Assembly: GCA_037974665.1 (NCBI GenBank)
Contig: CM075767.1
Span: 89,926,644 to 89,990,643 of the forward strand
Length of the DNA stretch: 64,000 bases
From: Ehretia macrophylla
Lineage: Eukaryota > Streptophyta > Magnoliopsida > Boraginales > Ehretiaceae
Reading direction: 5' to 3'
The position numbers were made by a program, and so were the translations under genes. The notes beneath the pieces are model-generated. The model did no database searches and was not told where the DNA came from. It worked only from the letters and a program-made list of their open reading frames with translations. Below are positions 26,819-52,875 of the stretch, piece after piece (positions within the stretch are counted from its first letter, which is position 1; every line of letters begins with the position of its first letter).

Positions 26819-26820
26819 GG

Positions 26821-32084: not shown

Positions 32085-32203
32085 GGGGTGCAACACAACC
32101 ACTTCCCAGGGGATCACCCATCCTAGTACTACTCTTGCCCAAGTACGCTTAACTTTGGAGTTCTGATGGGATCCGGTGCATTAGAGCTGTTATGATCGCA
32201 CCT
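32085..32203 (-). rRNA. 5S rRNA gene, copy 37
   Basis: Full length. Changes ACACAACCAC, GGGATCACCC, ACTCTTGCCCAAGTACGC, CTTTGGAG, TTAGAGCTGTTATG, 5' end CACCT. Confidence 0.91.
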
Positions 32204-32761
32204 GTCATAGTGGGGGCAGAATTCCTTTTTGTGTTAACGGTTCACAGTCCCAGACTAGAGAGATGGCCTATTCAGAAGGCCCAATGGGCTTAACAACAAC
32301 CCATTCGCTTCAACAACACAGCATCCTCGCAAGACGTGATATTGACGCATTGTAGGGCCTTTTAATGTCCCGCAAGTAAGGTTGTCGTCCTTTTTACAAC
32401 TCACGACGTACGATTCAGGAAAGAAAAATATAGCTTAATAAGAAAAGTCGCCCGAAACTGATAAAAACGTTCGATTTTGGGCTCCAAAAAGGGCATAGCA
32501 AGCAAGCTTGCTGCCTCCGTCGTAGAGCTCTATGAGCGCTTTCCAACGGTATGCTGTACGCCGTGTAACTCCTTACGGATCAAAAGTTATGGGCACCGGA
32601 GCGACGGAGACCTGGTCATAAGCCCTACGCCCTAGGTTTGCGGGCCCAGCCTCCACGTGATGCAAAGTTGTCTTGCCCAAGGTGCCGTGGGATTCGACAG
32701 TAGAAATGTGGTGGATAAAGTTTCTTGGCAACCCTAACCGGAGGAAAAAAACTTGAAAAGG

Positions 32762-32880
32762 GGGGTGCAACACGAGGACTTCCCAGGGGGTCACCCATCC
32801 TAGTACTACTCTCGCCCAAGCACGCTTAACTTCGGAGTTCTGATGGGATCCGGTGCATTAGTGCTGGTACGATCGCACCA
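32762..32880 (-). rRNA. 5S rRNA gene, copy 38 (nearest to consensus)
   Basis: Full length with only two visible changes from the window consensus (GTACGATC and a 5' end reading CACCA). Internal control region fully intact, so a good candidate for a functional gene. Confidence 0.96.
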
Positions 32881-33438
32881 GTCATGTTGGGGGTCGAATT
32901 CCTTTTTGTGTTAACGGTTCACAGTCCCAGCCTAGTGAGATGGCCCATTCAGAAGGCCCAATGGGCTTAACAACAACCCATCCGCTTCAACAACACAGCA
33001 TCCTCGCAAGACGTGATATCGACGCATTGTATGGCCCTCTATTGTCCCACGAGTATGGTCGTCATCCTTTTAACAGCTCACGACGTACGATTCGGGACGG
33101 AAAAACAGAGCTTAATAAGAAAAGTGGCCCGAAACTGATGAAAACATTCAATTTTGGGCTCCAAAAATGGCACAGCAAGCAAGAATGCTACCCCCATCGT
33201 AGAGCTCTCGGAGAGCTTTCCAACGGTATGCTGTGCGCCGCGTAACTCCTTACGGATCAAAATTTATGGGCACCGGAGCGACGGAGACTTGGTCACAAGC
33301 CCTACGCCCTCGGTTTGCGGGCCCAGCCTCCACGTGAAGCGAAGTTGTCTTGCCCCAGGTGCCGTGGGATTAGACAATAGAAATGTGGGGGATAAAGTAT
33401 CTTGGCAACCATAACCGGAGGAAAAAAAATTGAAAAGA

Positions 33439-33557
33439 GGGGTGCAACACGAGGACTTCCCAGGGGGTCACCCATCCTAGTACTACCCTCGCCCAAGCAC
33501 GCTTAACTTCGGAGTTCTGTTGGGATCCGGTGCATTAATGCTGGTATGATCGTACCT
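33439..33557 (-). rRNA. 5S rRNA gene, copy 39
   Basis: Full length. Changes TACCCTCGCC, CTGTTGGG, ATTAATGC, GTACCT. C box and A box intact. Confidence 0.94.
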
Positions 33558-34114
33558 ATCATAGTGGGGGCAGAATTCCTTTTTGTGTTAACGGTTCACA
33601 GTCCCAGACTAGAGAGATGGCCAAATCAGAAGGCCCAATGGGCTTAACAACAACCCATTCGCTTCAACAACACAGCATCCTCGCAAGACAAGATATCGAC
33701 GCAATGTAGGCCCCTCTAATGTCCCGCGAGTAAGGTTGTCGTCGTTTTATCACCTAACGACGTACGATCCGGGACAAAAAAAAAAGCTTAATAAGAAACG
33801 TGGCCCGAAACTGATAAAAACGTTCGATTTTGGGCTCCAAAAAGGGCATAGCAAGCAAGCTTGCTGCCTCCGTCGTAGAGCTCTATGAGCGCTTTCCAAC
33901 GGTATGCTGTGCGCCGCGTAACTCCTTACGGATCAAAAGTTATGGGCACCGGAGCGACGGAGACCTGGTCATAAGCCCTACGCCCTAGGTTTGCGGGCCC
34001 AGCCTCCACGTGATGCAAAGTTGTCTTGCCCAAGGTGCCGTGGGATTCGACAGTAGAAATGTGGTGGATAAAGTATCTTGGCAACCCTAACCGGAGGGAA
34101 AAAAATTGAAAAGG

Positions 34115-34233
34115 GGTGTGCAACACGAGGACTTCCGAGGGGGTCACCCATCCTAGTGCTACTCTCGCCCAAGCACGCTTAAATTCGGAGTTCTTATGGG
34201 ATCCGGTGCATTAGTGCTGGTATGATCGCACCC
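34115..34233 (-). rRNA. 5S rRNA gene, copy 40
   Basis: Full length. Changes GGTGTGC, TTCCGAGGG, AGTGCTAC, TTAAATTCGG, CTTATGGG. Its downstream spacer is nearly identical to that of copy 38. Confidence 0.93.
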
Positions 34234-34791
34234 GTCTTGTTGGGGGTAGAATTCCTTTTGGTGTTAACGGTTCACAGTCCCAGCCTAGAGCGATGTCCCA
34301 TTCAGAAGGCCCAATGGGCTTAACAACAACCCATCCGCTTCAACAATGCAGCATCCTTACAAGACGTGATATCGATGCATTGTAGGGCCCTCTAATGTCC
34401 CACGAGTAAGGTTGTCGTCCTTTTAACAGCTCACGATTTACGATCCGAAACGGAAAAAAAAAAGCTTAATAAGAAAAGTGCCCCGAAATAGATGAAAACG
34501 TTCGATTTTGGGCTCCAAAAAGGGCACAGCAAGCAAGCTTGCTGCCCCCGTCGTGGAGCTCTCGGAGAGCTTTCCAACGGTATGCTGTGCGCCGCGTAAC
34601 TCCTTACGGATCAAAATGTATGGGCACCGGAGCGACGGAGACCTGGTCACAAGCCCTACGCCCTCGGTTTGCGGGCCCAGCCTCCACGTGAAGCGAAGTT
34701 GTCTTGCCCAAGGTGCCGTGGGATTCGACAATAGAAATGTGGTGGATAAAGTATCTTGGCAACCCTAACCTGAGGAAAAAAATTGAAAAGG

Positions 34792-34910
34792 GGGGTGCAA
34801 CACGAGGACTTCCCAAGGGGTCACCAATCCTAGTCCTCCTCTCGCCCAAGCACGCTTACCTTCGGAGTTCTTGTGGGAACCGGTGCATTAGTGCTGGTAT
34901 GATGGCGCCT
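34792..34910 (-). rRNA. 5S rRNA gene, copy 41
   Basis: Full length but heavily changed: CACCAATCCTAGTCCTCCTC, CTTACCTTCGG, CTTGTGGGAACC, GATGGCGCCT. Probably a pseudogene. Confidence 0.87.
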
Positions 34911-35469
34911 GTCATGGTGGGGGCAGAATTCCTTTTTGTGTTAACGGTTTACAGTCCCAGCCCAGAGAGATGGCCCATTCAAAAGGCCCAATGGGCTAAA
35001 CGACAACCCATCTGCTACAACAACGTAGCATCCTCGCAAGACGTGATATCGACGCATTGTAGGGCCCTCTAATGTCCCACAAGTAAGGTTGTAGTCCTTT
35101 TAACAGCTCACGACATATGATCCGGGATGGAAAAACATAGATTAATAAGAAAAGTGGCCCGAAACTGATGAAAACGTTCGATTTTGGCCTCCAAAAAGGG
35201 GACAGCAAGAAAGCTTGCTGCCCCCGTCGTAGAGCTCTCGAACAGCTTTCTAACGGTATGCTTTGCGCCGTGTAACTCCTTACGGATCAAAAGTTATGGG
35301 CACCGGAGCGACGGAAACCTGGTCACTAGCCCTACGCCCTCCGTTTGCGGGCCCAGCCTCCAACTGAAGCGAAGTTATCTTACCCAAGGTGCCGTGGGAT
35401 TCGATAAATAGAAATGTGGTAGGCAAAGTATCATGAAAACCCTAACTGGAGGAAAAAAAATTGAAAAGG

Positions 35470-35588
35470 GGGGTGCAACACGAGGACTTCCTAGGGGGTC
35501 ACCAATCCTAGTACTACTCTCGCCCAAGCACGCTTAACTTCGGAGTTCTGATGGGATCCGTTGCATTAGTGCTGGTATGATTGCACCC
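35470..35588 (-). rRNA. 5S rRNA gene, copy 42
   Basis: Full length. Changes CCTAGGGGG, CACCAATCC in the C box, CCGTTGC, GATTGCACCC. The third LTR fossil lies 485 bp upstream. Confidence 0.94.
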
Positions 35589-36068
35589 GTCATGGTGGGG
35601 GCAGAATTCCTTTTTGTGTTCACGGTTCAGAGTCCCAGCCTATAGAGATGGCCCATTTAGAAGGCCCAATGGGCTTAACGACAACCCATCCGCCTCAACA
35701 ATGCAGCATCCTCGCAAGACGTGATATCGATGCATTGTACGGCCCTCTAATCTCCCACAAGTAGGGTTGTCGTCCTTTTAACAGCTCACGACGTAAGATC
35801 CGGGAAGGAAAAATAAAGCTTAATAAGAAAAGTGGCCTGAAACTGATGAAAACATTCGATTTTGGGCTCTAAAAAGGGCACAGCAAGCAAGCTTGCTGCC
35901 CCCGTCGTAGAGCTCTAGGAGCGCTTTCCAACGGTATGCTGTGCGCCACGTAACTCCTTACGGATCAAAAGTTAAGGCACCAGAGGGACGGAGACCTGGT
36001 CACAAGCCCTACGCCCTCGGTTTGCGGGCCCTGCCTCCACGTGAAGCGAAGTTGTCTTGCCCAAGGTT

Positions 36069-36073
36069 CCATG
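36069..36073. repeat. Left target-site duplication of family II copy 1
   Basis: CCATG, identical to 38,901-38,905. The array reads CCRTGGGATTCGA at this place. Confidence 0.9.
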
Positions 36074-38900
36074 TGTGATAACCCGAACCCGGCATGCATT
36101 TAATAGCACTTGACTGCATTTGATTAAATGTTTAATTAGTTAAATCAACCAAATTGCACTATTTTCATATTTCTCTTGGAAGCATTTAGTAATTATATAT
36201 TGAATAATTAAAGATTATTACCTATTCCTAATAATTATAGTAATTGAATTTCCTTTCTTGTGATTAATTAAGTGTTACCTTAAATGTTAGTGTTTAATTT
36301 TATTTGACTATGTGTTTATATTAACTTTCATTTGTAGCTTAATATTAACTTTATAACTCTTAAAATATTCTGGAAATAGTTAAATTAATCATTCTAAATG
36401 AATATTGAATACCTTGATTGTTTTGATTATTTTAGAAATCGATTTTGGTTGTTTTATGTTAAAATTACTCGATTTTCAAATAAATGAGAAAAGTAACTCC
36501 GAGCCGGAGTAAATTTTAAACTATGATGCTTTCCGAAAATGATATATTTCTTAGATTCTTTGAGAATTAATTGTTATTCTTTTATTGTCGCAACGTGCAT
36601 TGCATATCGAGGGCGTTAGCTAGAAAACGGATTCTAGTCCTCAGCAAATAGTGAAACTAGTATTTAGATGACTTAAATTTTATATTTTAATTATTACTAT
36701 CTAGAATTAATTTAGGTGATAGTTATTTAACTTAAAAATGCACAAAAGTAAGCTATTTTGACTAGTTTTAAGTTGTTTGACCAACATTGACCAAAGCCTT
36801 GACCCTTTTGACCCTTGTCATCTTTTAAATAGCTTAAAATAGCACAAAAATAAAAAAATAAAAAAAACAGAACTGAAAACAGAGCAGCCATGGCCGAAAA
36901 AATAAGGAGAACAAAAAAAAAAAACTCAACTTCAATTCTTCGATTCTTCGCGAGGGCCTCCACGGGGTGGTTTTCGAGGCACTCTACGAGGTTTTCCTAG
37001 CGTCTAGGAGCATCTAAGGTGAGGGTTTCATCGTTATTTGCGGATTTATACGTTGTGTATGTTAACTTTGTCAATTTTTAGATTTATCAGTATATCGTTA
37101 TCTAAAGCGATTTGATGCTTCTAGAATGTTCCTTGGCATTTGTAAAACATGTATTTATAGCTTTGTAACATTTTCTGCGGTTAAATGTTGTGATTGCAAA
37201 TTAAATTGTGAAATGAATAGTGTTTTGTGAATAGTAAAACCTTGAAACGTTGAAATTGCGCTGTTATGCTTTCCGTTGATGTAGAAACGTGCTAGGTATG
37301 CTAGAATGCTAAAATGTGTGGTTTGTTTGGGTTGCGTAGTGAAAAAAACAAGAATTAAGCCTTTGGGAAAGTCGGGGTCGTTTAGGTCGACTTTAGCGTT
37401 TTCTCATTTTGCGTGTTGGCATTGCTTCGGGAAGCCATGGAAGCACTTTTGGTGCGATTATGGCGTTGGTTGGGTGTTTGGTTGTTATAGTTGTAGTTCA
37501 AACGAGAAAGGGGAAAATCGGGGCTTTGCGCGAGTTCTAGTTTAAAGTAAGATTTCGTGGTCTTTAGACGTGGCTTATGGTGACCTAGGAGGGTTGGCGA
37601 AGTCGGTTTTCAGAACTCGCGGCTCGTTTGGAAATGGTAGCGTTTTGATAGTTGGGGCCGATTTGTGTTTTTGTGTGTTTTCTTGTTTTTATGCTTATAG
37701 AATGCTTAGAATTACTTGAAATACTTGTTTGAGTTGTTTTGGATTGAATTGCTTATCAATTGCTGCTATTGCGTGCGAGAATAACCTACCTTGTTATTCT
37801 TTCACGTGTGGCTTTAACGCTTGTTTATCGCCTTGTATCGAGTCTTACATTGCATAGTGTCTCGCGCGTGAGTGATGGGCCTCTCTAGGTAGCCTCGGGT
37901 TGCCAGTGTTGGTTGCTCTAGCTCCGCTGCTATTTCCCTTTTCTCGCTTGGGTTGCCTCCTAGGGAGTTTTGGGTCGTAGGTTGATGGATACTTCCGGGG
38001 TATTCCAAACTGGTGTTATAAGGTGGTTTGGGCCGGCGCGTCATCGTTAATATCATCGGAATCATGATAGGTACATTACTCGCTCGAGTGAACCATAGCC
38101 TTCAAAGTGTGGTATAGCTTTGATTGGTTGTGTTAATGCTTTCTTTAGTTGTTTAATTGTATTGTTGTTTATATTGTATGCCTTTTATTGATTGTATTGC
38201 TTAACGGTACCTATTTGCATTGCACGATCTTCTTTCTCTCCAACTTGATATATGTCTCGCCCTCACAGAGTATACGTGTTGTGTATACTCACTCCTCACC
38301 ACCACATTTCAGGAAATGTCATGTTAGCTGGAAAGTTCGTGATTTCGTGAAAGTTCGTGCCTGAAGAGTTGTCTTGCGTGCCTATGTGGCTTGAGTGTCG
38401 AAGTTGTAAAGATATATGCTTCCTTATGTTGTATGTTTTTATTGTCAAGAAGTTTTTATTTTAAGTTTCATTAGATTGTTGAAGTAGTTTGATAAGTTAG
38501 ATTATGTATTTAGTTAATGTAGCTTAATTTCAATGTATGTTTGTAATGACAAAGGAAAGAGACAGAAAGATATGATAGTCTAACTTATGCAATAGGTTGG
38601 TGTAGTTTAATTACTAAGCATGTGTGTATGGATAAAGGAAGAGTTAGAATAGTCTAGCACTTGAAAATGTATGTATATGTGCTTGTGGTTGCGTGTTGAG
38701 AACAAGGCTCGGATGGTCTTGAGGTGGTTGAATGGTTGGACATGGTATTGGTCCATTTATATGCTGTCGCAGGTTTGCTTTTTGCCTAGAAACAGGGTAG
38801 ACTCCGTCCGTTTTTCCTAAATTTTGCCCGGGTTTGGAATTGGGTTGTGATTAGATTGATTGATAGAACTCCCGGTCTCGAGAGGGATCGGGGTGTCACA
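36074..38900 (-). mobile_element. Solo-LTR-like fossil, LTR family II, copy 1
   Basis: A 2,827-bp insertion in the spacer upstream of copy 42. It starts TGTGATAACCCGAACCCGG and ends GGATCGGGGTGTCACA on the plus strand, with a perfect 5-bp target duplication CCATG on both sides. In the reverse direction it begins TGTGACACCCCGATCCC, a common start for long plant LTRs, so it is called minus. No gag, pol, protease or second LTR is seen; the ORFs present are short and low-complexity. The perfect target duplication and clean ends make it the best-preserved insertion edge in the window. Ty3/gypsy affiliation is likely but not shown by the sequence itself. Confidence 0.85.
38268..38290 (-). other. 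Conserved LTR hairpin, family II copy 1
   Basis: GAGTATAC at 38,268-38,275 and GTATACTC at 38,283-38,290 form a perfect 8-bp stem with a 7-base loop. CACCACATTTCAGGAAATG lies alongside. The identical stem is present in the other family II element. Confidence 0.7.
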
Positions 38901-38905
38901 CCATG
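38901..38905. repeat. Right target-site duplication of family II copy 1
   Basis: CCATG, followed by GGATTCGACAATAGAAATG, the normal 5S spacer. Confidence 0.9.
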
Positions 38906-38977
38906 GGATTCGACAATAGAAATGTGGTGGATAAAGTATCTTGGCAACCCTAACCAGCGGAAAAAAAATTGAAAAGG

Positions 38978-39096
38978 GGGGTGCAACACGAGGACTTCCA
39001 ACGGGGTCACCCATCCTAGTACTTCTCTCGCCCAAGCACGATTAACTTCGGAGTTCTAATGGGATCCGGTGCATTAGTGCTGGTATGATCGCATCC
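38978..39096 (-). rRNA. 5S rRNA gene, copy 43
   Basis: Full length. Changes CCAACGGGG, TACTTCTC, CACGATTAAC, CTAATGGG, GCATCC. Confidence 0.93.
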
Positions 39097-39654
39097 GTCA
39101 AGGTCGGGGTAGAATTCCTTTTTGTGTTAACGGTTCACAGTCCCAGCCTAGAGAGATGACCCATTTAGAAGGCCCAATGGGCTTAACAACAACCCATCCG
39201 CTTCAACAACGCAGCATACGCACAAGATGTGATATCGATGCATTGCAGGGCCCTCTAATGTCCCACGAGTAAGGTTGTCGACCTTTTAACAGCTCACGAC
39301 GTACGATCCGGGACAGAAAAACAAAGCATAAGAAGAAAAGTGGCCCGAAACTGATGAAAACGTTCGATTTTGGGCTCCAAAAAGGGCATAGCAAGCAAGC
39401 TTGCTGACCCCGCCGTAGAGCATCCGGAGTGCTTTCCAACGGTATGCTGTGCGCCGCGTAACTCCTTACGGATCAAAATTTATGGGCACCGGAGCGATGG
39501 AGACCTGGTCACAAGCCCTACGCCCTCGGTTTGAGGGCCCAGTCTCCACGTGAAGCGAAGTTGTCTTGCCCAAGATGCTGTGGGATTCGATAATAGAAAT
39601 GTGGTGGATAAAGTATCTTGGTGACCCTAACCGGAGGAAAAAAAATTGAAAATG

Positions 39655-39773
39655 GGGGTGCAACACGAGGACTTCCCAGGGGGTCACCCATCCTAGTACT
39701 ACTCTCGCCCAAGCACGCGTAACTTCAGAGTTCTGGTGGGATCCGGTGCATTAATGATGGTATGATTGCACCC
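39655..39773 (-). rRNA. 5S rRNA gene, copy 44
   Basis: Full length. Changes CACGCGTAACTTCAGAG, CTGGTGGG, ATTAATGATGG, GATTGCACCC. C box intact. Confidence 0.93.
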
Positions 39774-40331
39774 ATCATGGTGGGGGCAGAATTCCTTTTT
39801 GTGTTAACGGTTCACAGTCCCAACCTAGAGAGATGGCCCATTTAGAAGGCCCAATGGGCTTAACAACAACCCATCCGCTTCAACAACGCAGTATCCTCGC
39901 AAGACGTGATATCGACGCATTATTAGGCCCACTAATGTCCCGCAAGTAAGGTTGTCGTCCTTTTAACAACTCACGACTTACGATCCGGGAAGGAAAAATA
40001 GAGCTTAAAAAGAAAAGTGGCCCGAAACTGATGAAAACGTTCGATTTTGGGCTCCAAAAAGGGCACAGCGAGCTAACTCGCTGCCCCCGTCGTAGAGCTC
40101 TCGGAAAGCTTTCCAACGGTATGATGTGTGCCGCGTAACTCCTTACGGGTCAAAAGTTATGGGCACCGGAGCGACGGAGACCTGGTCACAAGCCCTACGC
40201 CCTCGGTTTTCCGGCCCAGCCTCCACGTGAAGCGAAGTTGTCTTGCCCAAGGTGCCATGGGATTCGACAATAGAATTTTGGTGGATAAAGTATCTTGGCA
40301 ACCCTAACCCGAGGAAAAAAACTTGTAAAGC

Positions 40332-40449
40332 GGGGTGCAACACGAGGACTTCCCAGGGGGTCACCCATCCTAGTATTACTCTCACCCAAGCACGCTTAAC
40401 TTCGGAGTTCTGATGTATCCGGTGCATTAGTGCTGGTATGATCGTACCC
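40332..40449 (-). rRNA. 5S rRNA gene, copy 45 (118 nt)
   Basis: One base lost in GATGTATCC. Also AGTATTACTCTCACCC and CGTACCC. Confidence 0.91.
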
Positions 40450-41008
40450 GTCTTGGTGGGGGTAGAATTCCTTTTTGTGTTAACGGTTCACAGTCCCAGC
40501 CTAGAGAGATGGCCCATTCCGAAGGCCCAATGGGCTTAACAACAACCCATCCACTTCAACAACGCAGCATCCTCGCAAGACGTGATATCAACGCATTGTA
40601 GGGCCCTCTAATGTCCCACGAGTCAGGTTTCTTTCCTTTTAACAGCTCACGACGTACGATCCGGGATGGAAAAATAGAGCTTAATAAGAAAAGTGGCCCA
40701 AAACTGATGAAAACGTTCGATTTTGGGCTCTAAAAAGGGCACAGCAGGCAAGCTTGCTTCCCATGTCGTAGAGCTCTCGGGGAGCTTTCCAACGATACGC
40801 TGGGCGCCGCGTAACTCCTTACGTATCAAAATTTATGGGCACCGGAGCGACGGAGACATGGTTACAAGCCCTACGCCCTCGGTTTGTGGGCCCAGCCTCC
40901 ACATGTAGCGAAGTTGTCTAGCCCAAGGTGCCGTGGGATTCGACAATAGAAATGTGCTGGATAAAGTATCTTGGCAACCCTAACTGGAGGAAAAAAAAAT
41001 TGAAAAGG

Positions 41009-41127
41009 GGGGTGCAAAACGAGGACTTCCAAGTGGGTCAACCATTCTAGTACTACTCTCGCCCAAGCACGCTTAACTTCGGAGTTCTGATGGGATTCAG
41101 TGCATTAGTGCTGGTATGATCGCACCT
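41009..41127 (-). rRNA. 5S rRNA gene, copy 46
   Basis: Full length. Changes GCAAAACGAGG (shared with copy 51), AAGTGGGTCAACCATTC in the C box, GGGATTCAGTGC, CACCT. Confidence 0.92.
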
Positions 41128-41685
41128 GTCATGGTGGGGGCAGAATTCCTTTTTGTGTTGACGGTTCACAGTCACATCATAGTGAGACGGCCTATTCAAA
41201 AGGCCCAATGGGCTTATCAACAACCCATCTGCTTCAACAACGCAGCATCGTCGCAATATGCGATATCGACGTATAGTAGGGCCCTCTAATGTCCTGCGAG
41301 TTAGGTTGTCAACCTTTTAACAGGTCACGACGTACGATCCTGGACAGAAAAACATAGCTTAATAAGAAAAATGGCCCGAAACTGATGAAAACATTCGATT
41401 GTGGGCTACAAAAAGGGTACAACGAGCAAACATGCCGCCCCCGTCCGAGAGCTCTCGGAGAGCTTTCCAACCGTATGCTGTGCGCCGCGTAACTCCTTAT
41501 GGATCAAAATCTATGGGCACCGGAGCGACGGAGACCTGGTCACAAGAGCTACGCCCTGGGTTTGTGGGCCCAGCCTCCACGTGAAGTGAAGTTGTCTTGC
41601 CCAAGGTGCCGTGGGATTCGACAATAGAAATGTGGTGGATAAAGTATCTTGGCAACCTTAACCGGAGGAAAAAAAATTGAAAATG

Positions 41686-41804
41686 GGGGTGCAACACGAG
41701 GACTTCCCAGGGGGTCACCCATCCTAGTGCTACTCTCGCCCAAGCACGCTTAACTTTGGAGTTCTGATGGGATCCGGAGCATTAATGCTGGTATGATCGC
41801 ACCC
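41686..41804 (-). rRNA. 5S rRNA gene, copy 47
   Basis: Full length. Changes AGTGCTAC, CTTTGGAG, CCGGAGCATTAATGC. Counterpart of copy 52. Confidence 0.94.
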
Positions 41805-42362
41805 GTCATGGTGGGGGCAGAATTCCTTTTTGTGTTAACGGTTCACTGTCCCAGCCTAGATAGATGGCCCATTCAGAAGGCCAAATGGGCTTAACCACAA
41901 CCCATCTGCTCCAACAACGCAGCATCCTCGCAAGACGTGATATTGACGCATTGTAGGGCCCTCTAATGTCTCGCGAGTAAGGTTGTCGTCCTTTTAACAG
42001 CTCACGACGTACGATCCGGGAAGGAAAAATAGAGCTCTATAAGAAAAGTGGCCCAAAACTGATGAAAACGTTTGATTTCGGCCTCCAAAAAGGGCACAAC
42101 GAGCAAGATGGCTGCCCCCATTGTAGAGCTCTCGGAGAGCATTGCAACGGTATGCTGTGCGCCGCATAACTCCTTATGGATCAAAACTTAAGGGCACCGG
42201 AGCGACGGAGACTTGGTTACAAGCCCTACGCCCTCGGTTTGTGGGCCCTGCCACCACGTGAAGCGAAGTTGTCTTGCCCAAGGTGCCGTGGGATTCGACA
42301 ATAGAAATGTGGTGGATAAAGTATCTTGGCAACCCTAACTAGAGGAAAAAAAATTGAAAAGG

Positions 42363-42481
42363 GGGGTGCAACACGAGGACTTCCCAGGGGGTCACCCATC
42401 CTAATGCTACTCTCGCCCAAGCACGCTTAACTTCTGAGTTCTGATGGGATCCGGCGCATTAGTGCTGGTATGATCGCACCC
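42363..42481 (-). rRNA. 5S rRNA gene, copy 48
   Basis: Full length, close to consensus. Changes CCTAATGCTAC, CTTCTGAG, CCGGCGC. Internal promoter mostly intact. Confidence 0.95.
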
Positions 42482-43039
42482 GTCATGGTGGGGGCTGAAT
42501 TCCTTTTTGTGTTAACGGTTCACAGTCCCAGCCTAGAGAGATGGCCCATTAAGAAGGCCCAATGGGCTTAACAACAACCCATCCGCTTCAACAACGCAGC
42601 ATCCTTGCAAGACGTGATATTGACAGATTGTAGGGCCCTCTAATGTCTCGCGAGTATGGTTGTCGTCCTTTTAACTGCTCATGAAGTACGATCCAGAACG
42701 GAAAAACAGAGCTTAATAAGAAAAGTGGCCCGAAACTGATGAAAACGTTCGATTTTGGGCTCCAAAAAGGGCACAACCAGCAAGCTTGCGGCCCATGTCG
42801 TAGAGCTCTCGGGGAGCTTTCCAACGGTATGCTGTACACCGCGTAACTCCTTACGGATCAAAAGTTATGGGCACTGGAGCGACAGAGACCTAGTCACAAG
42901 GCCTACGCCCTCGATTTGCGGGCCCAGCCTCCAAGTGAAACGAAGTTGTTTTTCCCAAGGTGCCGTGGGATTCGATAATAGAATTGTGGTGGATAAAGTA
43001 TCTTGGCAACCCTAACCGAAGGAAAAAAAATTGAAAAGT

Positions 43040-43158
43040 GGGGTGCAACACGGGGACTTCCCAAGGGGTAACCCATCCTAGTACTACTCTCGCCCAAGCA
43101 CGCTTAACTTCGTAGTTCTGATGGGATCCGGTGCAAGAGTGCTGGTATGATAGCACCC
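43040..43158 (-). rRNA. 5S rRNA gene, copy 49
   Basis: Full length. Changes ACACGGGGAC, AGGGGTAACCC in the C box, CGTAGTTC, TGCAAGAGTGC, GATAGCACCC. Confidence 0.92.
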
Positions 43159-43716
43159 GTCATGGTAGGGGCAGAATTCCTTTTTGTGTTAACGGTTAAC
43201 AGTCCCAGCATAGAGAGATGGCCCATTCAAAAGGCCTAATGGGCTTAACAACAACCCATCCGCTTCAACAACGCAGCATCCTCGCAAGAAGTGATATTGA
43301 CGCATTGTAGGGCCCTCTAATGTCCCGCGAGTAAGGTTGTCGTCCTTTTAACAGCTCACGACGTACGATCCGGGAAGGAAAAATAGAGCTTAATATGAAA
43401 AGTGGCCCGAAACTGATGAAAACGTTCGATTTTGGACTCCAATAAGGGCACAGCAAGCAAGCTTGCGGCCCATGTCGTAGAGCTCTCGGGGAGCTTTCCA
43501 ACGGTACGCTGTGCGCCGCAAAACTCCTTACGGATCAAAAGTTATGGGCACCGGACCGACGGAGACGTGGTTACAAGCCCTACGCCCTCGGTTTGCGGTC
43601 CCATCCTCCACGTGAAGCGTAGTTGTCTTGCCCAAGGTGCCGTGGGATTCGATAATAGAAATGTGGTGGATAAAGTATCTTGGCAACCCTAACTGGAGGA
43701 AAAAAAATTGAAAAGG

Positions 43717-43835
43717 GGAGTGCAACACGAGGACTTCCCAAGGGGTCACCCATCCTTGTTCTACTCTCGCCCAAGGAAGCTTAACTTCGGAGTTCTGATG
43801 GGATCCGGTGCATTAGTGATGGTATGATCGCACAC
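43717..43835 (-). rRNA. 5S rRNA gene, copy 50
   Basis: Full length. Changes CCTTGTTCTACTC, CCCAAGGAAGCTT in the A box, AGTGATGG, 5' end CACAC. Confidence 0.92.
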
Positions 43836-44393
43836 GTAATGGTGGGGGTAGAATTCCTTTTTCTGTTAACGGTTCACAGTCCCAGCCTAGAGAGATGGCC
43901 TATTCAAAAGGCCCAATGCGCTTAACAACTACCCATCAGCTTCAACAACGCAGCATCCTCGCAAGACGTGATATTCACGCATTGTAAGGCCCTCTAATGT
44001 ACTGCAAGTAAGGTGGTCGTCCTTTTCACAGCTCACGACGTACGATCCGGGACGAAAAAATAGAGCTTTATAAGAAAAGTGGCCCGAAACTGATGAAAAC
44101 GTTCGATTTTGGACTCCAATAAGGGCACAGCAAGCAAGCTTGCGGCCCATGTCGTAGAGCTCTCGGGGAGCTTTCCAACGGTACGCTGTGCGCCGCGTAA
44201 CTCCTGACGTATCAAAATTTATGGGCACCGGAGCGACGGAGACATGGTTACAAGCCCTACGCCCTCGGTTTGTGGGCCCAGCCTCCACATGAAGTGAAGT
44301 TGTCTTGCCCAAGGTGCCGTGGGATTCGACAATAGAAATATGCTGGATAAAGTATCCTGGCAACCCTAACCGGAGGAAAAAAAATTGAAAATG

Positions 44394-44512
44394 GGGGTAC
44401 AAAACGAGGACTTTCGAGGGGGTCAACCATCCTAGTACTACTCTCGCCCAAGCACGCTTAACTTCGGAGTTCTGATGGGATTCGGTGCATTAGTGCTGGT
44501 ATGATCGCACCT
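44394..44512 (-). rRNA. 5S rRNA gene, copy 51
   Basis: Full length. Changes GTACAAAACGAGG, CTTTCGAGGG, GTCAACC, GGGATTCGG, CACCT. Counterpart of copy 46. Confidence 0.92.
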
Positions 44513-45070
44513 ATCATGATGGGGGCAGAATTCCTTTTTGTGTCAACGGTTCACAGTCCCAGCCTAGATAGATGGCCCATTCAGAAGGCCCAATAGGCTT
44601 AACAACAACCCATCCGCTTCAACAACGCAGCATCCTCGCAAGATGTGATATTGACGCATTGTAGGGCCCTCTAATGTCTCGCGAGGAAGGTTGTCATCCT
44701 TATAACAGCTCACGACATACGATCCGGGAAGGAAAAATAGAGCTTAATAAGAAAAGTGGCTCGAAACTCATGAAAACATTCGATTTTGGACTCCAATAAG
44801 GGCACAGCAAGCAAGCTTGCTGCCCCCGTCGTAGAGCCCTAGGAGCACTTTCCAACGGTATGTTGTGCGCCGCATAACTACTTATGGATCAAAAGTTATG
44901 GGCACCGGAGCGACGGAGACCTGGTCACAAGACCTACGCCCTCGGTTTGCGGGACCAGCCTCCACGTGAAGCGAAGTTGTCTTGCCCAAGGTGCCGTGGG
45001 ATTCGACAATAGAAATGTGGTGGATAAAGTATCTTGGCAACCCTAACCGGAGGAAAAAAAATTGAAAATG

Positions 45071-45189
45071 GGGGTGCAACACGAGGACTTCCCAGGGGGT
45101 CACCCATCCTAGTGCTACTCTCGCCCAAGCAGGCTTAACTTTGGAGTTCTGATGGGATCCGGTGCAATAGTGCTGGTATGATCGTACCC
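45071..45189 (-). rRNA. 5S rRNA gene, copy 52
   Basis: Full length. Changes AGTGCTAC, CAGGCTT, CTTTGGAG, GTGCAATAG, CGTACCC. Confidence 0.94.
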
Positions 45190-45746
45190 GTCATGGTAGG
45201 GGCAGAATTCCTTTTTGTGTTAACGGTTCACAGTCCCAGCCTAGATAGCTGGCCCATTCGGAAGGCCCAATGGGCTTAACCGCAACCCATCCACTCCAAC
45301 AACGCAGCATCCTCGCAAGATGTGATATTGACGCATTGTAGGCCCTCTAATGTTTCGCGAGTAAGGTTGTCGTCCTTTTAACAGCTCACGACGTACGATC
45401 CAGGAATGAAAAATAGAGCTTAATAAGAAAAGTGGCCCGAAACTGATGAAAACATTCGATTTTGGACTCTAATAAGGGCACAGCAAGCAAGCTTGCTGCC
45501 CCCGTCGTAGAGCCCTAGGAGCGTTTTCCAACGGTATGCTGTGCGCCGCGTAACTCCTTACGGATCAAAAGTTATGGGCACCGGAGCGACGGAGACCTAG
45601 TCACAAGCCCTACGCCCTCGGTTTTCGGGCCCAGCCATCTAGTGAAGCGAAGTTGTCTTGCCCAAGGTGCCGTGGGATTCTAAAATATAATTGTGGTGGA
45701 TAAAGTATCTTGGCAACCCTAACCGAAGGAAAAAAAATTGAAAAGG

Positions 45747-45865
45747 GGGTTGCAACACGAGGACTTCCCAGGGGGTCACCCATCTTAGTACTACCCTCGC
45801 ACAAGCACGCTTAACTGCTGAGTTCTGATGGGGTCCGGTGCATTAGTGCTGGTATGATCGCACCC
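45747..45865 (-). rRNA. 5S rRNA gene, copy 53
   Basis: Full length. Changes GGTTGC, CATCTTAGTACTACCC, CGCACAAGC, AACTGCTGAG, GGGGTCC. The 5' end is consensus. Confidence 0.92.
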
Positions 45866-46423
45866 GTCATGGTGGGGGCAGAATTCCTTTTTGTGTTAAC
45901 GGTTCACAGTCCCAGCCTAGAGAGATGGACCATTCAGAAGGCCCAATGGGCTTAACAACAACCCATCCACTTCAACAACGCAGCATCCTTGCAAGACGTG
46001 ATATTGACAGATTGTAGGGCCCACTAATGTCCCGCGAGTTTGGTTGTCGTCCTCTTAACAGCTCACGACGTACGATCCGGGAAGGAAAAATAGAGCTTAA
46101 TAAGAAAAATGGCCCGAAACTGATGAAAACGTTCAATTTTCATTTCTAAAAAGGTTAAACCTAGCAAGCTTACTGCCCCCGTCATAGACCTCTAGGAGCC
46201 CTTTCCAACGGTATGCTGTGCGCCGCGTAACTCCTTACGGATCAAAAGTTATGGGCACCGGAGCGACGGAGACCTGGTCACAAGCCTTACGCCCTCGGTT
46301 TGTGGGCCTAGCCTCCACATGAAGCGAAGTTGTCTCGCCCAAGGTGCCGTGGGATTCGATAATAGAAATATGGCGGATAAAGTATCTTGGCAACCCTAAC
46401 CGGAGGAAAAAAAATTTAAAAGG

Positions 46424-46542
46424 GGAGTGCAACACGAGGACTTCCCAGGGGGTCACCCATTCTAGTACTACTCTCGCCCAAGCACGCTTAACTTTGGAGT
46501 TCTGATGGGATCTGGTGCATTAATGCGGGTATGATCGCACCT
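46424..46542 (-). rRNA. 5S rRNA gene, copy 54
   Basis: Full length. Changes GGAGTGC, CATTCTAGT, CTTTGGAG, TCTGGTGCATTAATGCGG, CACCT. Confidence 0.92.
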
Positions 46543-47100
46543 GTCATGGTAGGGGCAGAATTCCTTTTTGTGTTAACAGTTCACAGTCCCAGCCTAGGGA
46601 GATGGCCCATTCAGAAGGCCCAATGGGCTTAACAACAACCCATCCGCTTCCACTACGCAGCATCCTCGCAAGATGTGATATCGTTGCATTGTAGGGCCCT
46701 CTAATTTCCCACGAGTAAGGTTGTCGTCCTTTTAACAGCTCACGACGTACGATCCGGGACGAAAAACAAAGCTTAATAAGAAAAGTGGCCCGAAACTGAT
46801 GAAAAAGTTCAATTTTGGGTTCAAAAACGGGTACATCGAGAAAGCATGCCGCCCCAGTCATAGAGCTCTCGGAGAGCTTTCCAACGGTATGCTGTGTACT
46901 GCGTAACTCCTTACGGATCAAAATTTATGGGCATTGGAGCGACGGAGACCTGGTCACAAGCCCTACGCCCTCGGTTCACAAGCCCAGCCTCTACGTGAAG
47001 CGAAGTTGTCTTGCCCAAGATGCCGTGGGATTCGACAATAGAAATGTGATGGATAAAGTATCTTGGCAACCCTAACCGGGGCAAAAAATATTCAAAATGG

Positions 47101-47219
47101 GGGGTGCAACCCGAGGACTTCGCAGGGGGTCACCCATCCTAGTACTACTCTCGCCCCAGCACGCTTAAATTTGGAGTTCTGATGAGATCCGGTGCATTAG
47201 TGCTCGGATGATTGCACCC
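47101..47219 (-). rRNA. 5S rRNA gene, copy 55
   Basis: Full length. Changes ACCCGAGG, CTTCGCAG, GCCCCAGC, CTTAAATTTGG, GATGAGATCC, CTCGGATGATTG. Confidence 0.9.
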
Positions 47220-47776
47220 GTCATGGTGGGGGCGGAATTCCTTTTGTGTTAACGGTTCACAGTCCCAGCCTAGAGAGATGGCCCATTTAGAAGGCCCAAT
47301 GGGCTTAACAACAATCCATCCGCTTCAACAACGCAGTATCCTCGCAAGATGTGATATTGACGCATTGTAGGGCCCTCTAATGTGTCGCGAGTAAGGTTGT
47401 CATCCTTTTAACATCTCACGACGTACGATCCGGGAAGTAAAAATAGAGCTTAATATGAAAAGTGGCCCGAAACTGATGAAAACGTTCGATTTTGGACTCC
47501 AATAAGGGCACAGCAAGCAAGCTTGCTACCCCCGTCGTAGAGCTCTAGGAGCGCTTTCCAACGGTATGCTGTGCGCCGCATAACTCCATACGGATCAAAA
47601 GTTATGGGCACCGGAGCGATGGAGACCTGGTCACAAGCCCTACGCCCTCGGTTTGTGGGCCCAGCCACCACGTGAAGCGATGTTGTCTTGCCCAAGGTGC
47701 ATTGGCATTCGACAACAGAAATGTGGTGGATAAAGTATCTTGGCAACCCTAACCAGAGGAAAAAAAAATGAAAAGA

Positions 47777-47895
47777 GGGGTGCAACACGAGGACTTCCCA
47801 AGGGGTCACCTATCCTAGTGCTACTCTCACCCAAGCACGCTTAACTTCGGAGTTCTGATGGGATCCGGTGCATTAGTGCTGGTATGATCGCACCC
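47777..47895 (-). rRNA. 5S rRNA gene, copy 56
   Basis: Full length. Changes CCAAGGGG, CACCTATCC, AGTGCTACTCTCACCC; the whole 5' half is consensus. Confidence 0.95.
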
Positions 47896-48453
47896 GTCAT
47901 GGTGGAGGTAGAATTCCTTTTTGTGTTAACGGTTCACAGTCCCAGCCTAGAGAGATGGCCTATTCAGAAGGCCCAATGGGCTTAACAACAACCCACCTGC
48001 TTCGACAACGCAGCATCCTTACAAGACGTGATATTGACACATTGTAGGGCCCTATAATGTCCCGCGAGTATGGTTGTCGTCCTTTTAACAGCTCACGACG
48101 TACGATCCAGGAAGGAAAAATAGAGCTTATTAAGAAAAGTGGCCCGAAACTGATGAAAACGTTCGATTTTGGGCACTAAAAAGGTCAAAGCTAGCAAGCT
48201 TGCTACCCCCGTCGTAGAGCTCTAGGAGCGCTTTCCAACGGTATGCTGTGCGCCGCGTAACTCCTTGCGGATCACAAGTTATGGGCACCGGAGCGACGGA
48301 GACCTGGTCACAAGCCCTACGCCCTCGGTTTGCGGGCCCAACCTCCACGTGAAGCGAAGTTGTATTGCCCAAGGTGCCGTGGGATTCGACAATAGAAATG
48401 TGGGGGATAAAGTATCTTGGCAACCCTAACCGGAGGAAAAAAAATTGAAAAGG

Positions 48454-48572
48454 GGGGTTCAACACGAGGACTTCCCAGGGGGTCACCCATCCAAGTACTA
48501 CTCTTGCCCAAGCATGCTTAACTTCGGAGTTCTGATGGGATCCGGTGCATTAGTGCTGGTATGATTGCACCC
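48454..48572 (-). rRNA. 5S rRNA gene, copy 57
   Basis: Full length. Changes GGTTCAAC, CCAAGT, ACTCTTGCCC, CATGCTT, GATTGCACCC. Confidence 0.94.
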
Positions 48573-49131
48573 GTCATGGTAGGGGCGGAATTCCTTTTTG
48601 TGTTAACGGTTCACAGTCCCAGCCTAGAGAGATGGCCCATTTAGAAGGCCCAATGGGCTTAACAACAACGCATCCGCTTCAACAACGTAGCATCCTCGCA
48701 AGACGTGATATCGATTCATTGTAGGGCCCTCTAATTTCCCACGTGTAAGGTTGTCGTCCTTTTAACAGCTTACGGCGCACGATCCGGGACAGAAAAATAG
48801 AGCTTAATAAGAAAAGTGGCCCGAAACTGATGAAAACGTTCGATTTTGGGCTCCAAAAAGGGCACACCAAGCAAGCTTGCTACCACCGTCATAGAGCTCT
48901 TGGAGACTTTTCCAACGGTATGCTGTGCGCCGCGTAACTCCTTACGGATCAAAAGTTATGGGCACCGGAGCGACGGAGACCTGGTCAGAAGCCCTACGCC
49001 CTCAGTTTGCGGGCCCAGCCTCCATGTGAAGCGAAGTTGTCTTGCCCAAGGTGCCGTGGGATTCGACAATAGAAATGTGGTGGATAAAGTATCTTGGCAA
49101 CCCTAACCAGTGGAAAAAAAAATTGAAAAGG

Positions 49132-49250
49132 GGGGTGCAACATGGGGACTTCCCAGGGGGTCACCCATCCTAGTACTACTCTCGCCCAAGCCTGCTTAAC
49201 TTCAGAGTTCTGATGGGATCCGGTGCATTAGTGCTGGTATGATCGCACCT
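49132..49250 (-). rRNA. 5S rRNA gene, copy 58
   Basis: Full length, close to consensus. Changes ACATGGGGAC, CCTGCTT in the A box, CAGAG, CACCT. Confidence 0.95.
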
Positions 49251-49808
49251 GTCATGGTGGGGGCGGAATTCCTTTTTGTGTTAACGGTTCAGAGTCCCAG
49301 CCTAGAGAGATGGCTCGTTCAGAAGGCCCAATGGGCATAACAACAACCCATCCGCGTCAACAACGTAGCATGCTCGCAAGACATGATATCGACGCATTGT
49401 AGGGCCCTCTAATGTCCCGCGAGTAAGTTTTTTGTCCTTTTAACAGCTCACGACGTACAATCCGGGATAGATAAACATAGCTTAATAAGAAAAGTGGCCC
49501 GAAACTGATGAAAACGTTCGATTTTGGGCTCCAAAAAGGGTACAGAGAGCAAGCTGGCTGCCCCCGTCGTAGAGCTCTCAAAGAGCTTTCCAACGGTATG
49601 CTATGCGCCGCGTAACTACTTACGGATCAAAAGTCATGGGCACCGGAGCGACGGAGACCTGGTCACAAGCCCTACGCCCTCGGTTTGCGGGCCCAGCCTC
49701 CACGTGAAGCAAAGTTGTCTTGCCCAAGGTGCCGTGGGATTCGATAATAGAAATGTGGTGGATAAAGTATCTTGGCAACCCTAACCGGAGGAAAAAAAAT
49801 TGAAAATC

Positions 49809-49926
49809 GGGGTGCAACACAAGGACTTCCCAGGCGGTCACCATCCTAGTAGTACTCTCGCCCAAGCACGCTTAACTTCGTAGTTCTGATGGGATCCGGT
49901 GCATTAGTGCAAGTATGATCGCACCC
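49809..49926 (-). rRNA. 5S rRNA gene, copy 59 (118 nt)
   Basis: One base lost inside the C box (GGCGGTCACCATCC). Also ACACAAGGAC, TAGTAGTAC, CGTAGTTC, TGCAAGTATG. Confidence 0.9.
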
Positions 49927-50484
49927 GTCATGGTGGGGGCGGAATTTTTTTTTGTGTTAACGGTTCACAGTCCTAGCCTAGAGAGATGGCCCATTCAGAA
50001 GGCCCAATGGGCTTAACAACAACGCATCCGCTTCAACAACGCAGCATCCTCGCAAGACGTGATATCGACGCATTGTAGGGCCCTCTAATGTCCCGCGAGT
50101 AAGGTTGTCGTCCTTTTAACAACTCACGACGTAAGATCCGGGACGGAAAAACAGAGCTTGATAAGAAAAGTGGCCTAAAACTGATGAAAACGTTCGATTT
50201 TTTGCTACAAAAAGGGCACAGCGAGCAAGCTTGCTACCCCTGTCGTAGAGCTCTCGGAGAGCTTTCCAACGGTATGCTTTGCGCCGCATAACTCCTTATG
50301 GATCAAAATTTATGGGCACCGGAGCGATGGAGACCTGGTCACATGCTCTACGTCCTCGGTTTGTGGGGCCAGCCTGCACGTGAAGCGAAGTTGTCTTGCC
50401 CAAGGTGCCGTGGGATTCAACAATAGAAATGTGGTGGATAAAGTATCTTGGCAACCCTAACCGGAGGAAAAAATATTGAAAAGG

Positions 50485-50603
50485 GGGGTACAACACGAGG
50501 ACTTGCCAGGGGGTCACCCATCCTAGTACTACTCTCGCCCAACCACGCTTAACTTCGGAGTTCTGATGGGATCCGGTGCATTAGTGCTGGTATTATCTCA
50601 CCC
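50485..50603 (-). rRNA. 5S rRNA gene, copy 60
   Basis: Full length. Changes GGTACAAC, CTTGCCAG, CAACCACGC in the A box, TATTATCTCACCC. Confidence 0.93.
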
Positions 50604-51161
50604 GTCATGGTGGGGGTGGAATTCCTTTTTGTGTTAACGGTTCACAGTCGCAACCTAAAGAGATTGCCCATTCAGAAGGCCCAATGGGCTTAACAACAAC
50701 CCATCCGCTTCAACAACGCAGCATCCTCGCAAGACGTGATATCGACGCATTTTAGGGCCCTCTAATCTCCCGTGAGTAAGGTTTTCGTCCTTTTAACAGC
50801 TCTCGACATACGATCCGGGATAGAAAAACAGAGCTTAATGAGAAAAGTGGCCCGAAACTGTTGAAAACATTCAATTTTGGGCTCCAAAAAGGGCACAGCG
50901 AGAATGCTGGCTGCCCCCGTCGTAGAGCTCTCGGAGAGCTTTCCAATGGTATGTTGTGCTCCGCGTAACTCGTTACGGATCAAAAGTTATGAGTACCGGA
51001 GCGACGGAGACCTGGTCACAAGCCCTATGCCCTCGGTTTGCGGGCCCAGCCTCCACGTGAAGTGAAGTTGTCTTGCCCAAGGTGCTGAGGAATTCGATAA
51101 TAGAAATGTGGTGCATAAAGTATCTTGGCAACCCTAACCGAAGGTAAAAAAATTGAAAAGG

Positions 51162-51279
51162 GGGGTGCAACACGAGGACTTCCCAGGGGATCACCCATCT
51201 TAGTACTACTCTCGCCCTGCACGCTTAACTTCGGAGTTCTGATGGGATCCGGTGCATTAGTGCTGGTATGATCGCACCC
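51162..51279 (-). rRNA. 5S rRNA gene, copy 61 (118 nt)
   Basis: One base lost at the edge of the A box (GCCCTGCACGC), plus GGATCACCCATCTT. Last subfamily A copy; the partial LTR fossil starts 90 bp upstream. Confidence 0.92.
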
Positions 51280-51369
51280 GTCATGGTGGGGGCAGACTTC
51301 CTTTTTGTGTTAACGGTTCACAATCCCAACCGAGAGAGATGGCCCATACAAAAGGCCCAATGGGCTTAA

Positions 51370-52770
51370 TGTAACACCCCGATCCCTCTCGAGACCGGGA
51401 GTTCTATCATTTAATCTAATCACAACCCAAACCAAAACCCCGGCATAATTTTCAGGGAAAACGGACGGAGTCTCCCCTGTTTCTAGGCGAAATGTAAAAC
51501 TTGCGACCGCATATATAAGTGGACCAATACCATGTCCAATCATTCCGAACCACCTCAAGGCCATCCGAGCCTCGGTTCTCAACAATTTAATCTCAGCAAG
51601 TATACATACATTTCCAATTTAAAAGCTAACCTATCTCTTTTCATTTTTGACAAGTACATTCAACTTATCAATTAGACCATACAAAGCTACTACATAAAAT
51701 AAACTATCATGCCATTCTAACTCTTTTCCTTTGGACATTACAGACATGCATTGAAGTTAAGCTATGCTAACTGATTACATAAACTAGCTTATCAATTCAC
51801 CTCAGCTACTTAGCTAAATTTAAATTACACTTCTTTTGACAATAAATACAAACAACATATGAACATACATCTTTACGAACTTCGACACTCTAGCCACATA
51901 GGCACGCAAGACAACTCTTCAGGCAATGAACTTTCACGAAATCACGAACTTTCCAGCTAACATGACATTTCCTGAAATGTGGTGGTGATGAGTGAGTATA
52001 CACAACACGTATACTCAGTGAGGGCGAGACAGATATCGAATTGGAGAGAAAGAAAGTCGTGCAATGCAAATAAGACATTTAAGCAATATAACTGATAAAT
52101 AAGCAATCAAAACAAACAATCAATACAATAAGCAATTACTGAAAGCATTAACACAACCATTCAAAGCTATACCACACTTTGAAGGCTATGGTTCACTCTT
52201 ACGAGCAATATACCATTTCACGAGCGATACATCAATCTCGAGCTTGATGTTGACAACGATGACAATAAGCGCGCATCCACCTTATAACACCAGTTTGGAA
52301 TGCCCCGAAAGTATCCATCAATTCTACGACCCAGACCCCCCTGGGAGGCAACCCAAGCGAGAAAGGGAATACCAGCGGAGCTAGAGCAACCAACACTGGC
52401 AACCCGAGCCTACCCAGAGAGGCCCATCACTCGCGCGCGAGACACTATGCGAAGCAAGACTCGATACAAGGCGATAAACAAGCAATAGCACAACAATACA
52501 AACTAGTGACAACAAATGAGATAGCAAGCAATCACAATCAATACTAACATTCAACTAACTTTTTAAGCATAACAAGCAATAATAACCAACAATAACACCA
52601 ATTAAACAAGTATATCAAGCAACCCTAAGCATTCTATAGGCATAATATCAAGATAACAAGCAAAATCACAAATCGGCCCCAACTATCAAAACACTACCAT
52701 TTCCAAACGAGCCACGAGTTCTGGAAACCGACTTCGCCAATCCTCCTAGGTCACCATAAGGCATGTCTAA
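51370..52770 (+). mobile_element. Partial LTR fossil, LTR family II, copy 2
   Basis: Begins TGTAACACCCCGATCCC directly after the spacer word GGGCTTAA. It runs parallel (inverted, about 85% by eye) to roughly the first half of the family II LTR seen at 36,074-38,900. It ends at about 52,770, where 5S gene sequence resumes directly. It is broken: only part of one LTR is present, with no coding region. No target duplication can be recognised because the right edge is not an element end. The 5S units on its two sides belong to different subfamilies, so this edge is also a rearrangement point of the array. Confidence 0.8.
51994..52016 (+). other. Conserved LTR hairpin, family II copy 2
   Basis: GAGTATAC (51,994-52,001), loop ACAACAC, GTATACTC (52,009-52,016). 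It is preceded by CCTGAAATGTGG and followed by AGTGAGGGCGAG, the same arrangement as the family I module at 28,391-28,436. Confidence 0.7.
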
Positions 52771-52875
52771 GGACCCCGCAGGGGGTCACCCATCCTAGTA
52801 CTACTCGCGCCCAAGCACACTTAACTTCGGAGTTCTGATTGGTTTCGGTGCATTAGTGCTGGTATGATCACTCCC
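52771..52875 (-). pseudogene. 5S rRNA pseudogene, copy 62 (3' end missing)
   Basis: 105 nt remain. The 14 nt encoding the RNA's 3' end are absent, and LTR-derived sequence abuts at GGAC (52,771-52,774). The lost end pairs with the RNA 5' end (helix I), so a normal 5S rRNA could not fold. The downstream terminator is gone too. Other changes: ACTCGCGCCC, CACACTT, GATTGGTTTCGG, GATCACTCCC. First subfamily B copy by its upstream spacer. Confidence 0.92.

What the first reader, a model, noticed from the sequence alone, without database searches (positions are those of the whole stretch)
51370..52875. Two 5S spacer subfamilies meet exactly at a partial LTR fossil and a truncated 5S gene
Left of 51,370 every unit is subfamily A; right of about 52,771 every unit is subfamily B, with at least six diagnostic spacer words changed together. 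The boundary is occupied by a partial family II LTR whose right edge abuts a 5S gene lacking its 3' end. The shared bases GGAC at the joint suggest an end-joining or illegitimate recombination event. Two formerly separate parts of the array, or two arrays, appear to have been brought together here, with the LTR as a bystander or a partner.
Basis: partly seen in the sequence, partly recalled or inferred. Interest (0 to 1): 0.72.

Follow-up and report, generated by a model that had tools for sequence, protein, structure and literature searches.

The report
Copied deletion scar in 5S arrays
Two kinds of decayed 5S ribosomal-gene repeat meet here because one old deletion removed the long stretch that used to lie between them, and the block carrying that scar was later copied to seven places in this plant's genome.

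Summary
The 57 complete units left of the joint are A and the 16 right of it are B. They meet at a family II LTR that keeps 1,409 of about 2,870 bp and abuts a 5S gene keeping 97 of 119 nt; the break is at 52,778|52,779. Beyond the window B runs on for 50 kb without A units.

The interpretation changes. The same joint occurs exactly at 7 places on three chromosomes (control 0), so it is not an assembly artefact. Both unbroken partners survive in cis, same order and orientation, at two other loci: the intact solo LTR in A spacer, and the B unit with a complete gene 3' end. They lie 184,668 bp apart on C8 and about 293 kb apart on C10. Ten samples of the C8 interval: nine hold 5S, A in majority, two of them with mixed units; one holds none. 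So A and B were parts of one array; one deletion, without homology at the break, joined them, and blocks with the scar were then duplicated.

In passing: about 176,000 5S core words in this 1.58 Gb genome (7.5% if each is a 677-bp unit); the window's genes look like unselected relics.

The parts
300..51369 (-). 5S array of subfamily A (57 complete units, partial units beside insertions, and the left part of the unit split by the joint)
   Evidence: Rfam hits; unit alignment and A/B columns
27699..31609 (.). older insertion ('ins2') in an A unit; its left boundary is found at both pre-deletion loci and near all 7 joint loci
   Evidence: 5S match ends at 27,698 and resumes at 31,610; boundary word in 15 places, 11 of them at these nine loci and 4 elsewhere
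36074..38900 (+). insertion 'ins3', family II LTR-like, opposite orientation to the joint LTR; boundary word found only here and at C4:31.44 Mb
   Evidence: 5S breaks at 36,073 and 38,901; LTR match 38,900-37,556 at 80%; boundary word at 2 places
51162..51369 (-). 5S gene and first ~90 bp of the A spacer, ending in the left TSD copy CTTAA
51370..52778 (-). truncated solo LTR of family II: intact 3' terminus (left edge, TGTAACACC), 5' half lost; 1,409 of about 2,870 bp
   Evidence: intact same-site copies L019, L020, L021, L027 are 2,868-2,872 bp
52778..52779 (.). the deletion joint: LTR ...GGACCCCG | CAGGGGG... 5S
   Evidence: comparison with both unbroken partners on C8; word at 7 loci, control 0
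52779..52875 (-). 5S gene lacking its 3'-terminal 22 nt, with unusual letters (CTCGCGCCC, GATTGGTTTC) shared with the unbroken gene on C8 and, with one change, on C10
52876..64000 (-). 5S array of subfamily B, continuing beyond the window

Best explanation
One deletion by non-homologous end joining, followed by block duplication. (1) An LTR retrotransposon of a very abundant family inserted into the spacer of an A-type 5S unit with a 5-bp target duplication (CTTAA) and was reduced to a solo LTR. The solo LTR and target duplication are shown; LTR-LTR recombination is inferred. (2) In one copy of this array, a break inside the solo LTR was joined, without homology at the break, to a break inside the 3' end of a B-type 5S gene further along the same array. 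What lay between was lost, about 185-293 kb judged from the two surviving unbroken copies. The two ends and their cis arrangement are shown; whether the loss was within one chromatid or an unequal exchange between copies is not known. (3) The scarred block, with at least the ins2 insertion 15-25 kb to its left, was then copied to seven places on C4, C5 and C8. The copies are shown; the copying mechanism is not. (4) The 5S units are no longer homogenised and mutate as apparently unselected relics; copies resemble their counterparts more than their neighbours.
For: The joint word is found at 7 places, all 0 mismatches, reversed control 0. All 7 have A on the left (44-49 A against 2-6 B letters) and B on the right (45-48 B against 1-4 A). 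The intact solo LTR lies at the same nucleotide, with the right-hand CTTAA, at C10:10.61, C8:40.55, C6:82.50 and C9:15.85 Mb. The unbroken B gene with the same odd letters and a complete 3' end lies at C8:40,735,098 and, over the 121 bases read, at C10:10.3177 Mb. On C8 the parent unit and the next two match window units u62, u63 and u64 in register (92.2, 93.9 and 94.2%, against 91.5, 91.1 and 91.0% for the next best); the two units before it have no special partner. The C8 ends lie 184,668 bp apart in the same orientation. Of 10 samples from the LTR rightward to 40.7264 Mb, 9 hold 5S with A letters in majority (L059 and L066 include mixed units) and 1 has no 5S; B is present by 40.7293 Mb. 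The ins2 boundary is found at both unbroken loci and all seven joint loci, 15-39 kb from the LTR. In the LTR tree of 16 rows the 7 joint copies form one clade, 95/92.
Against: On the left-flank 5S tree the 7 joint copies are not resolved as one clade. The left units of the C8 and C10 copies are not closest to their in-register partner u60; consensus-like u35 and u38 win, 93.2-93.3%. Distances from ins2 to the LTR vary, so the blocks have been altered since. Four further ins2 places (C2, C7 twice, C10:26.3 Mb) have neither the joint nor the solo-LTR word. Two other near-matches of the odd gene word (C6:0.71 and C9:18.1 Mb, 2 mismatches) were not read, so other B parents are possible. The A/B border on C8 (2.9 kb) and the C10 interval were not read. 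The insertion 50 kb right of the joint is not shared with the other joint loci, so how far the copied block reaches to the right is unknown. Long reads were not available.
Confidence: 0.9

Rival explanations
1. Two separate arrays, from different chromosomes, were fused here by ectopic end joining.
For: A and B are clearly distinct blocks, and 5S units are listed on at least 17 of 20 contigs (capped lists).
Against: The unbroken partners lie in cis, same order and orientation, on both C8 and C10, with B reached after an A-type stretch on C8. An ectopic exchange between two paralogous copies of this same long array cannot be excluded.
Confidence: 0.05
2. Assembly artefact.
For: 5S arrays are hard to assemble; no reads were available.
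Against: The identical joint at seven loci whose LTRs differ by 1.8-3.5% from each other; a chimaera would not recur at one base in diverged copies.
Confidence: 0.01
3. Homologous recombination between LTRs, or LTR-to-LTR template exchange, made the boundary.
For: An LTR sits at the boundary; the family is very abundant (8,367 LTR-end words).
Against: The break is inside the LTR and the other partner is a 5S gene; the C8 parent sits in an uninterrupted stretch of B units over the 3.7 kb read, with no LTR and no homology at the break.
Confidence: 0.02
4. Microhomology-mediated joining through the in-register AGGAC, with the four following bases resolved to the LTR strand.
For: A 5-nt in-register match 4 nt from the break; a run of 5 or more occurs in 1.0% of random pairings (4 or more in 4.8%).
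Against: Simple annealing at AGGAC would leave TTCC after it; all 7 joints have CCCG, the LTR letters.
Confidence: 0.2

Closest known systems
Solo LTRs and truncated LTR copies formed by homologous and illegitimate recombination (rice, PMC1940013, passages read)
   Same: Solo LTR with TSD, then partial loss by a non-homologous deletion.
   Different: Here the deletion spans about 185-293 kb of mostly tandem 5S repeats, and its scar was later multiplied to seven loci.
Massively amplified 5S rDNA of pikes, Esox (PMC5437419; abstract and two discussion sections read)
   Same: Extreme 5S amplification on many chromosomes, blocks of spacer families that may be homogeneous or mixed, some inverted; the authors propose breaks, retroelements or circles for spreading.
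   Different: Pike genes show little pseudogenisation and methylation-type changes were not enriched. Here genes are about as diverged as spacers in the window, CG transitions are raised, and the count is about 176,000 core words against >20,000 copies. This is a plant.
Arabidopsis 5S rDNA clusters (PMC9757041, passages read)
   Same: Plant 5S arrays resolved in long-read assemblies, with large copy-number differences between loci.
   Different: About 4,000 copies on three chromosomes, against roughly 176,000 core words here.
Cassandra retrotransposons (PMC10853983, PMC7215508; search listing and abstract starts only)
   Same: LTR element and 5S sequence side by side.
   Different: No 5S match was found inside this LTR; it merely inserted into 5S DNA.

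Membership tests
Solo LTR | TG...CA termini flanked by a short target duplication, no internal region | tested here: met
   Pre-deletion copies: TGTAACACC...ATCACA flanked by CTTAA on both sides in L019 and L021; in L020 and L027 the left copy reads TTTTA
Solo LTR | both termini present in the window copy | tested here: not met
   right half replaced by 5S sequence at 52,779
End-joining deletion | both unbroken partners known, in cis, same orientation | tested here: met
   C8 and C10
End-joining deletion | little or no homology at the break | tested here: met
   0 nt at the break; AGGAC 4 nt away
Segmental duplication | the same non-homologous junction at several loci in diverged copies | tested here: met
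   7 loci; LTR identities among them 96.5-98.2%
Segmental duplication | block ends in unique sequence outside the array | not tested
Cassandra (5S-bearing LTR) | 5S promoter sequence inside the LTR | tested here: not met
   BLAST of a 5S unit against 30 LTR loci (E up to 1e-10) gave matches only in their flanks
Functional 5S rDNA locus | genes conserved above spacer | tested here: not met
   gene/spacer divergence from consensus 5.2/6.4% (A) and 7.0/6.3% (B); 0 of 73 genes equal to the consensus

The most novel reading that the evidence does not exclude
In this genome 5S rDNA has become a dispersed, decaying satellite that spreads as large multi-unit blocks rather than single units. Nested insertions and this deletion scar work as heritable barcodes, from which the order of block copying between chromosomes can be read.
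Probability: 0.6. Interest if true: 0.7.

Novelty: new member of a known kind. Interest (0 to 1): 0.5.

Why it matters
The joint itself is an ordinary kind of event, but both unbroken partners and seven descendants survive in one assembly, so event order, approximate deletion size and break structure can be read directly. It shows that a boundary between 5S subfamilies can be a deletion scar rather than a fusion, and that 5S arrays in this plant were copied between chromosomes as large blocks. How 5S arrays change place is an open question (three models are listed in PMC5437419), and these barcodes make it testable.

Tried and rejected
Assembly artefact, LTR-LTR recombination, fusion of unrelated arrays and seven independent events were considered and rejected (see rivals). 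The reverse direction, in which C8/C10 arose by insertion into the joint, was rejected because it would have to recreate half an LTR, a target duplication and 22 nt of a gene. The 14 loci with a similar LTR edge (GGGCTAAC|TGTAAC) were first taken for the same insertion; the one read (L067) looks like a different insertion at nearly the same place, because its LTR runs into a purine-tract-like stretch (on the other strand), not into 5S. Naming the species was not achieved. Eight literature searches, judged by titles and abstract starts, showed neither this genome nor this joint. No firm date is given because no rate is known for this plant; with the grass LTR rate of 1.3e-8 per site and year (recalled), LTR differences of 1.8-3.5% among joint copies would mean roughly 0.7-1.3 million years.

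Full report
WHAT IS THERE. The window is C4:89,926,644-89,990,643 of a 1.58 Gb genome in 20 contigs. It is a plant by its 5S sequence (recalled). The window holds 78 5S genes, all on the minus strand, in units of about 677 bp. Aligning the 73 complete units shows two groups that meet at 51,370-52,778: 57 on the left (88.9% mean identity), 16 on the right (88.3%), 85.1% between. Thirty-four columns change majority letter, 24 strongly. At those 24 no left unit has fewer than 15 A and no right unit fewer than 20 B; u09, u14 and u27 on the left carry 7-8 B letters. I fetched 80 kb of flanks and typed them. In the 50 kb to the right every unit that could be scored is B, apart from a gap of about 9.5 kb with no 5S, an inserted element. 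To the left A units mix with units that are B-like in the first third of the spacer, and beyond about -17 kb a third type (C) takes over.

THE JOINT. The LTR's left edge is a true terminus. Four other loci hold the solo LTR at the same nucleotide of the spacer: 2,868-2,872 bp, with CTTAA at the right-hand end in all four; the left copy is CTTAA in two (C8, C10) and TTTTA in two (C6, C9). At the C8 and C10 loci the LTR continues GGACCCCGAAACCC where the window has GGACCCCG|CAGGGGG; the C6 and C9 loci read GGACCCTAAAACCC; of the 19 other family copies listed, 15 read GGACCCCGAAACCC exactly. The break is therefore 52,778|52,779, and GGACCCCG is LTR. Against the unbroken 5S parent there is no homology at the break; AGGAC is shared in register 4 nt to the left (a run of 5 or more in 1.0% of 50,000 random pairings).

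SEVEN COPIES. The 27-nt joint word, up to 3 mismatches allowed, is found 7 times, all exact, control 0: C4 twice, C5 four times, C8:11.32 Mb once. All seven have A on the left and B on the right. Their LTRs are 96.5-98.2% identical to each other and form one clade, 95/92; the left-flank 5S tree does not resolve that clade. The window's closest copy is the inverted one at C4:31.43 Mb (LTR 98.2%), the only other place with the ins3 boundary.

THE UNBROKEN STATE. The truncated gene has unusual letters. A 48-nt word of them, up to 3 mismatches, gives 106 matches. Three are exact: the window, C4:31.43 and C8:40,735,128. Four have 1 mismatch: three joint loci and C10:10,317,741. Four have 2: the two remaining joint loci, and C6:712,289 and C9:18,136,005, which were not read. 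The C8 place is an unbroken B unit with an intact 3' end; all units in the 3.7 kb read are B. The C10 gene also has its 3' end, in the 121 bases read. The parent and the next two units on C8 match u62, u63 and u64 in register; the two before it have no special partner, as expected if their counterparts were deleted. The intact solo LTR lies on the same chromosomes in the same orientation: 184,668 bp from the C8 parent, about 293 kb from the C10 parent (coordinates). Ten 1.4-kb samples of the C8 interval: nine hold 5S with A letters in majority, of which L059 has one part-unit with 4A/4B and L066 (40.7250-40.7264 Mb) has 17A/6B and 8A/5B; one (L061) holds no 5S. A further sample at 40.7293-40.7314 Mb is B. 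The older insertion ins2 lies left of the LTR at both unbroken loci and at all seven joint loci, at 15-39 kb; its boundary word also occurs at four places without the joint. So the order A - ins2 - A - LTR - A - B existed before the joint, and the joint is a deletion.

HOW IT WORKED. Shown: solo LTR with target duplication, both parents, deletion product, seven copies. Inferred: two double-strand breaks, or one unequal non-homologous exchange, sealed by end joining. Not known: within one chromatid or between copies; copying mechanism. C5:70.79-70.81 Mb has the ins2 boundary three times about 8.6 kb apart, so local tandem growth probably also occurs.

SETTING. Within the window units diverge 5-7% from their consensus in gene and spacer alike (A genes slightly less than spacer, B genes slightly more); 0 of 73 genes equal the consensus. 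Transitions at CG sites are 7-8 times those at A/T sites, and 2-3 times those at other C/G sites. These look like unselected, probably methylated relics; methylation was not measured. Genome-wide, a 45-nt 5S core word with up to 3 mismatches has 176,096 matches, control 0; the same word finds 68 of the window's 78 genes. At 677 bp each this would be about 119 Mb, 7.5% of the genome; isolated hits and other 5S-bearing elements were not removed. 8,812 genes (118-nt word) have at most 1 mismatch, none of them in the window.

COMPARISON. Solo LTRs and illegitimate deletions are well known in plants (PMC1940013, passages). Extreme 5S amplification is described in pikes with >20,000 copies and little decay (PMC5437419, abstract and two sections). 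Eight literature searches listed nothing on this joint by title or abstract start; most listed papers were not opened.

Noticed in passing
whole genome (G000): About 176,000 5S core words (up to 3 mismatches in 45 nt) in 1.58 Gb, roughly 7.5% of the genome if each is a 677-bp unit, and 8,812 near-perfect genes.
   Followed up: partly
window 300-63695: 5S genes are about as diverged as the spacers, and CG sites show 7-8 times the A/T transition rate (2-3 times that of other C/G sites): relic, probably methylated arrays.
   Followed up: yes
window vs C4:31.43 Mb: Between the same two copies the 5S units differ more (4.4% left, 5.6% right) than the LTR between them (1.8%); cause not settled (CG decay or exchange with neighbours).
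   Followed up: partly
C3, C5, C6, C8, C9, C10: 14 loci hold another family II LTR edge at almost the same spacer nucleotide (GGGCTAAC|TGTAAC); the one read (L067) looks like a different insertion. Possible site preference.
   Followed up: partly
window 300-2313 and 6376-8386: Units u01-u03 and u10-u12 match each other best (92-94%): an old duplication of a nine-unit stretch, about 6.08 kb apart.
   Followed up: no
window coordinates -30,000 to -17,300 (L016, L009): A third unit type, B-like in the first third of the spacer and A-like after it; similar mixed units occur among A units and at C8:40.725 Mb.
   Followed up: partly
C5:70,790,842; 70,799,476; 70,808,106: ins2 boundary three times about 8.6 kb apart, probably a local tandem triplication.
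   Followed up: no
C4:90,029,607 (about window +102,964): An element with a GCAAC target duplication sits in the B array; its left edge is otherwise found only at C1:3,553,908.
   Followed up: partly
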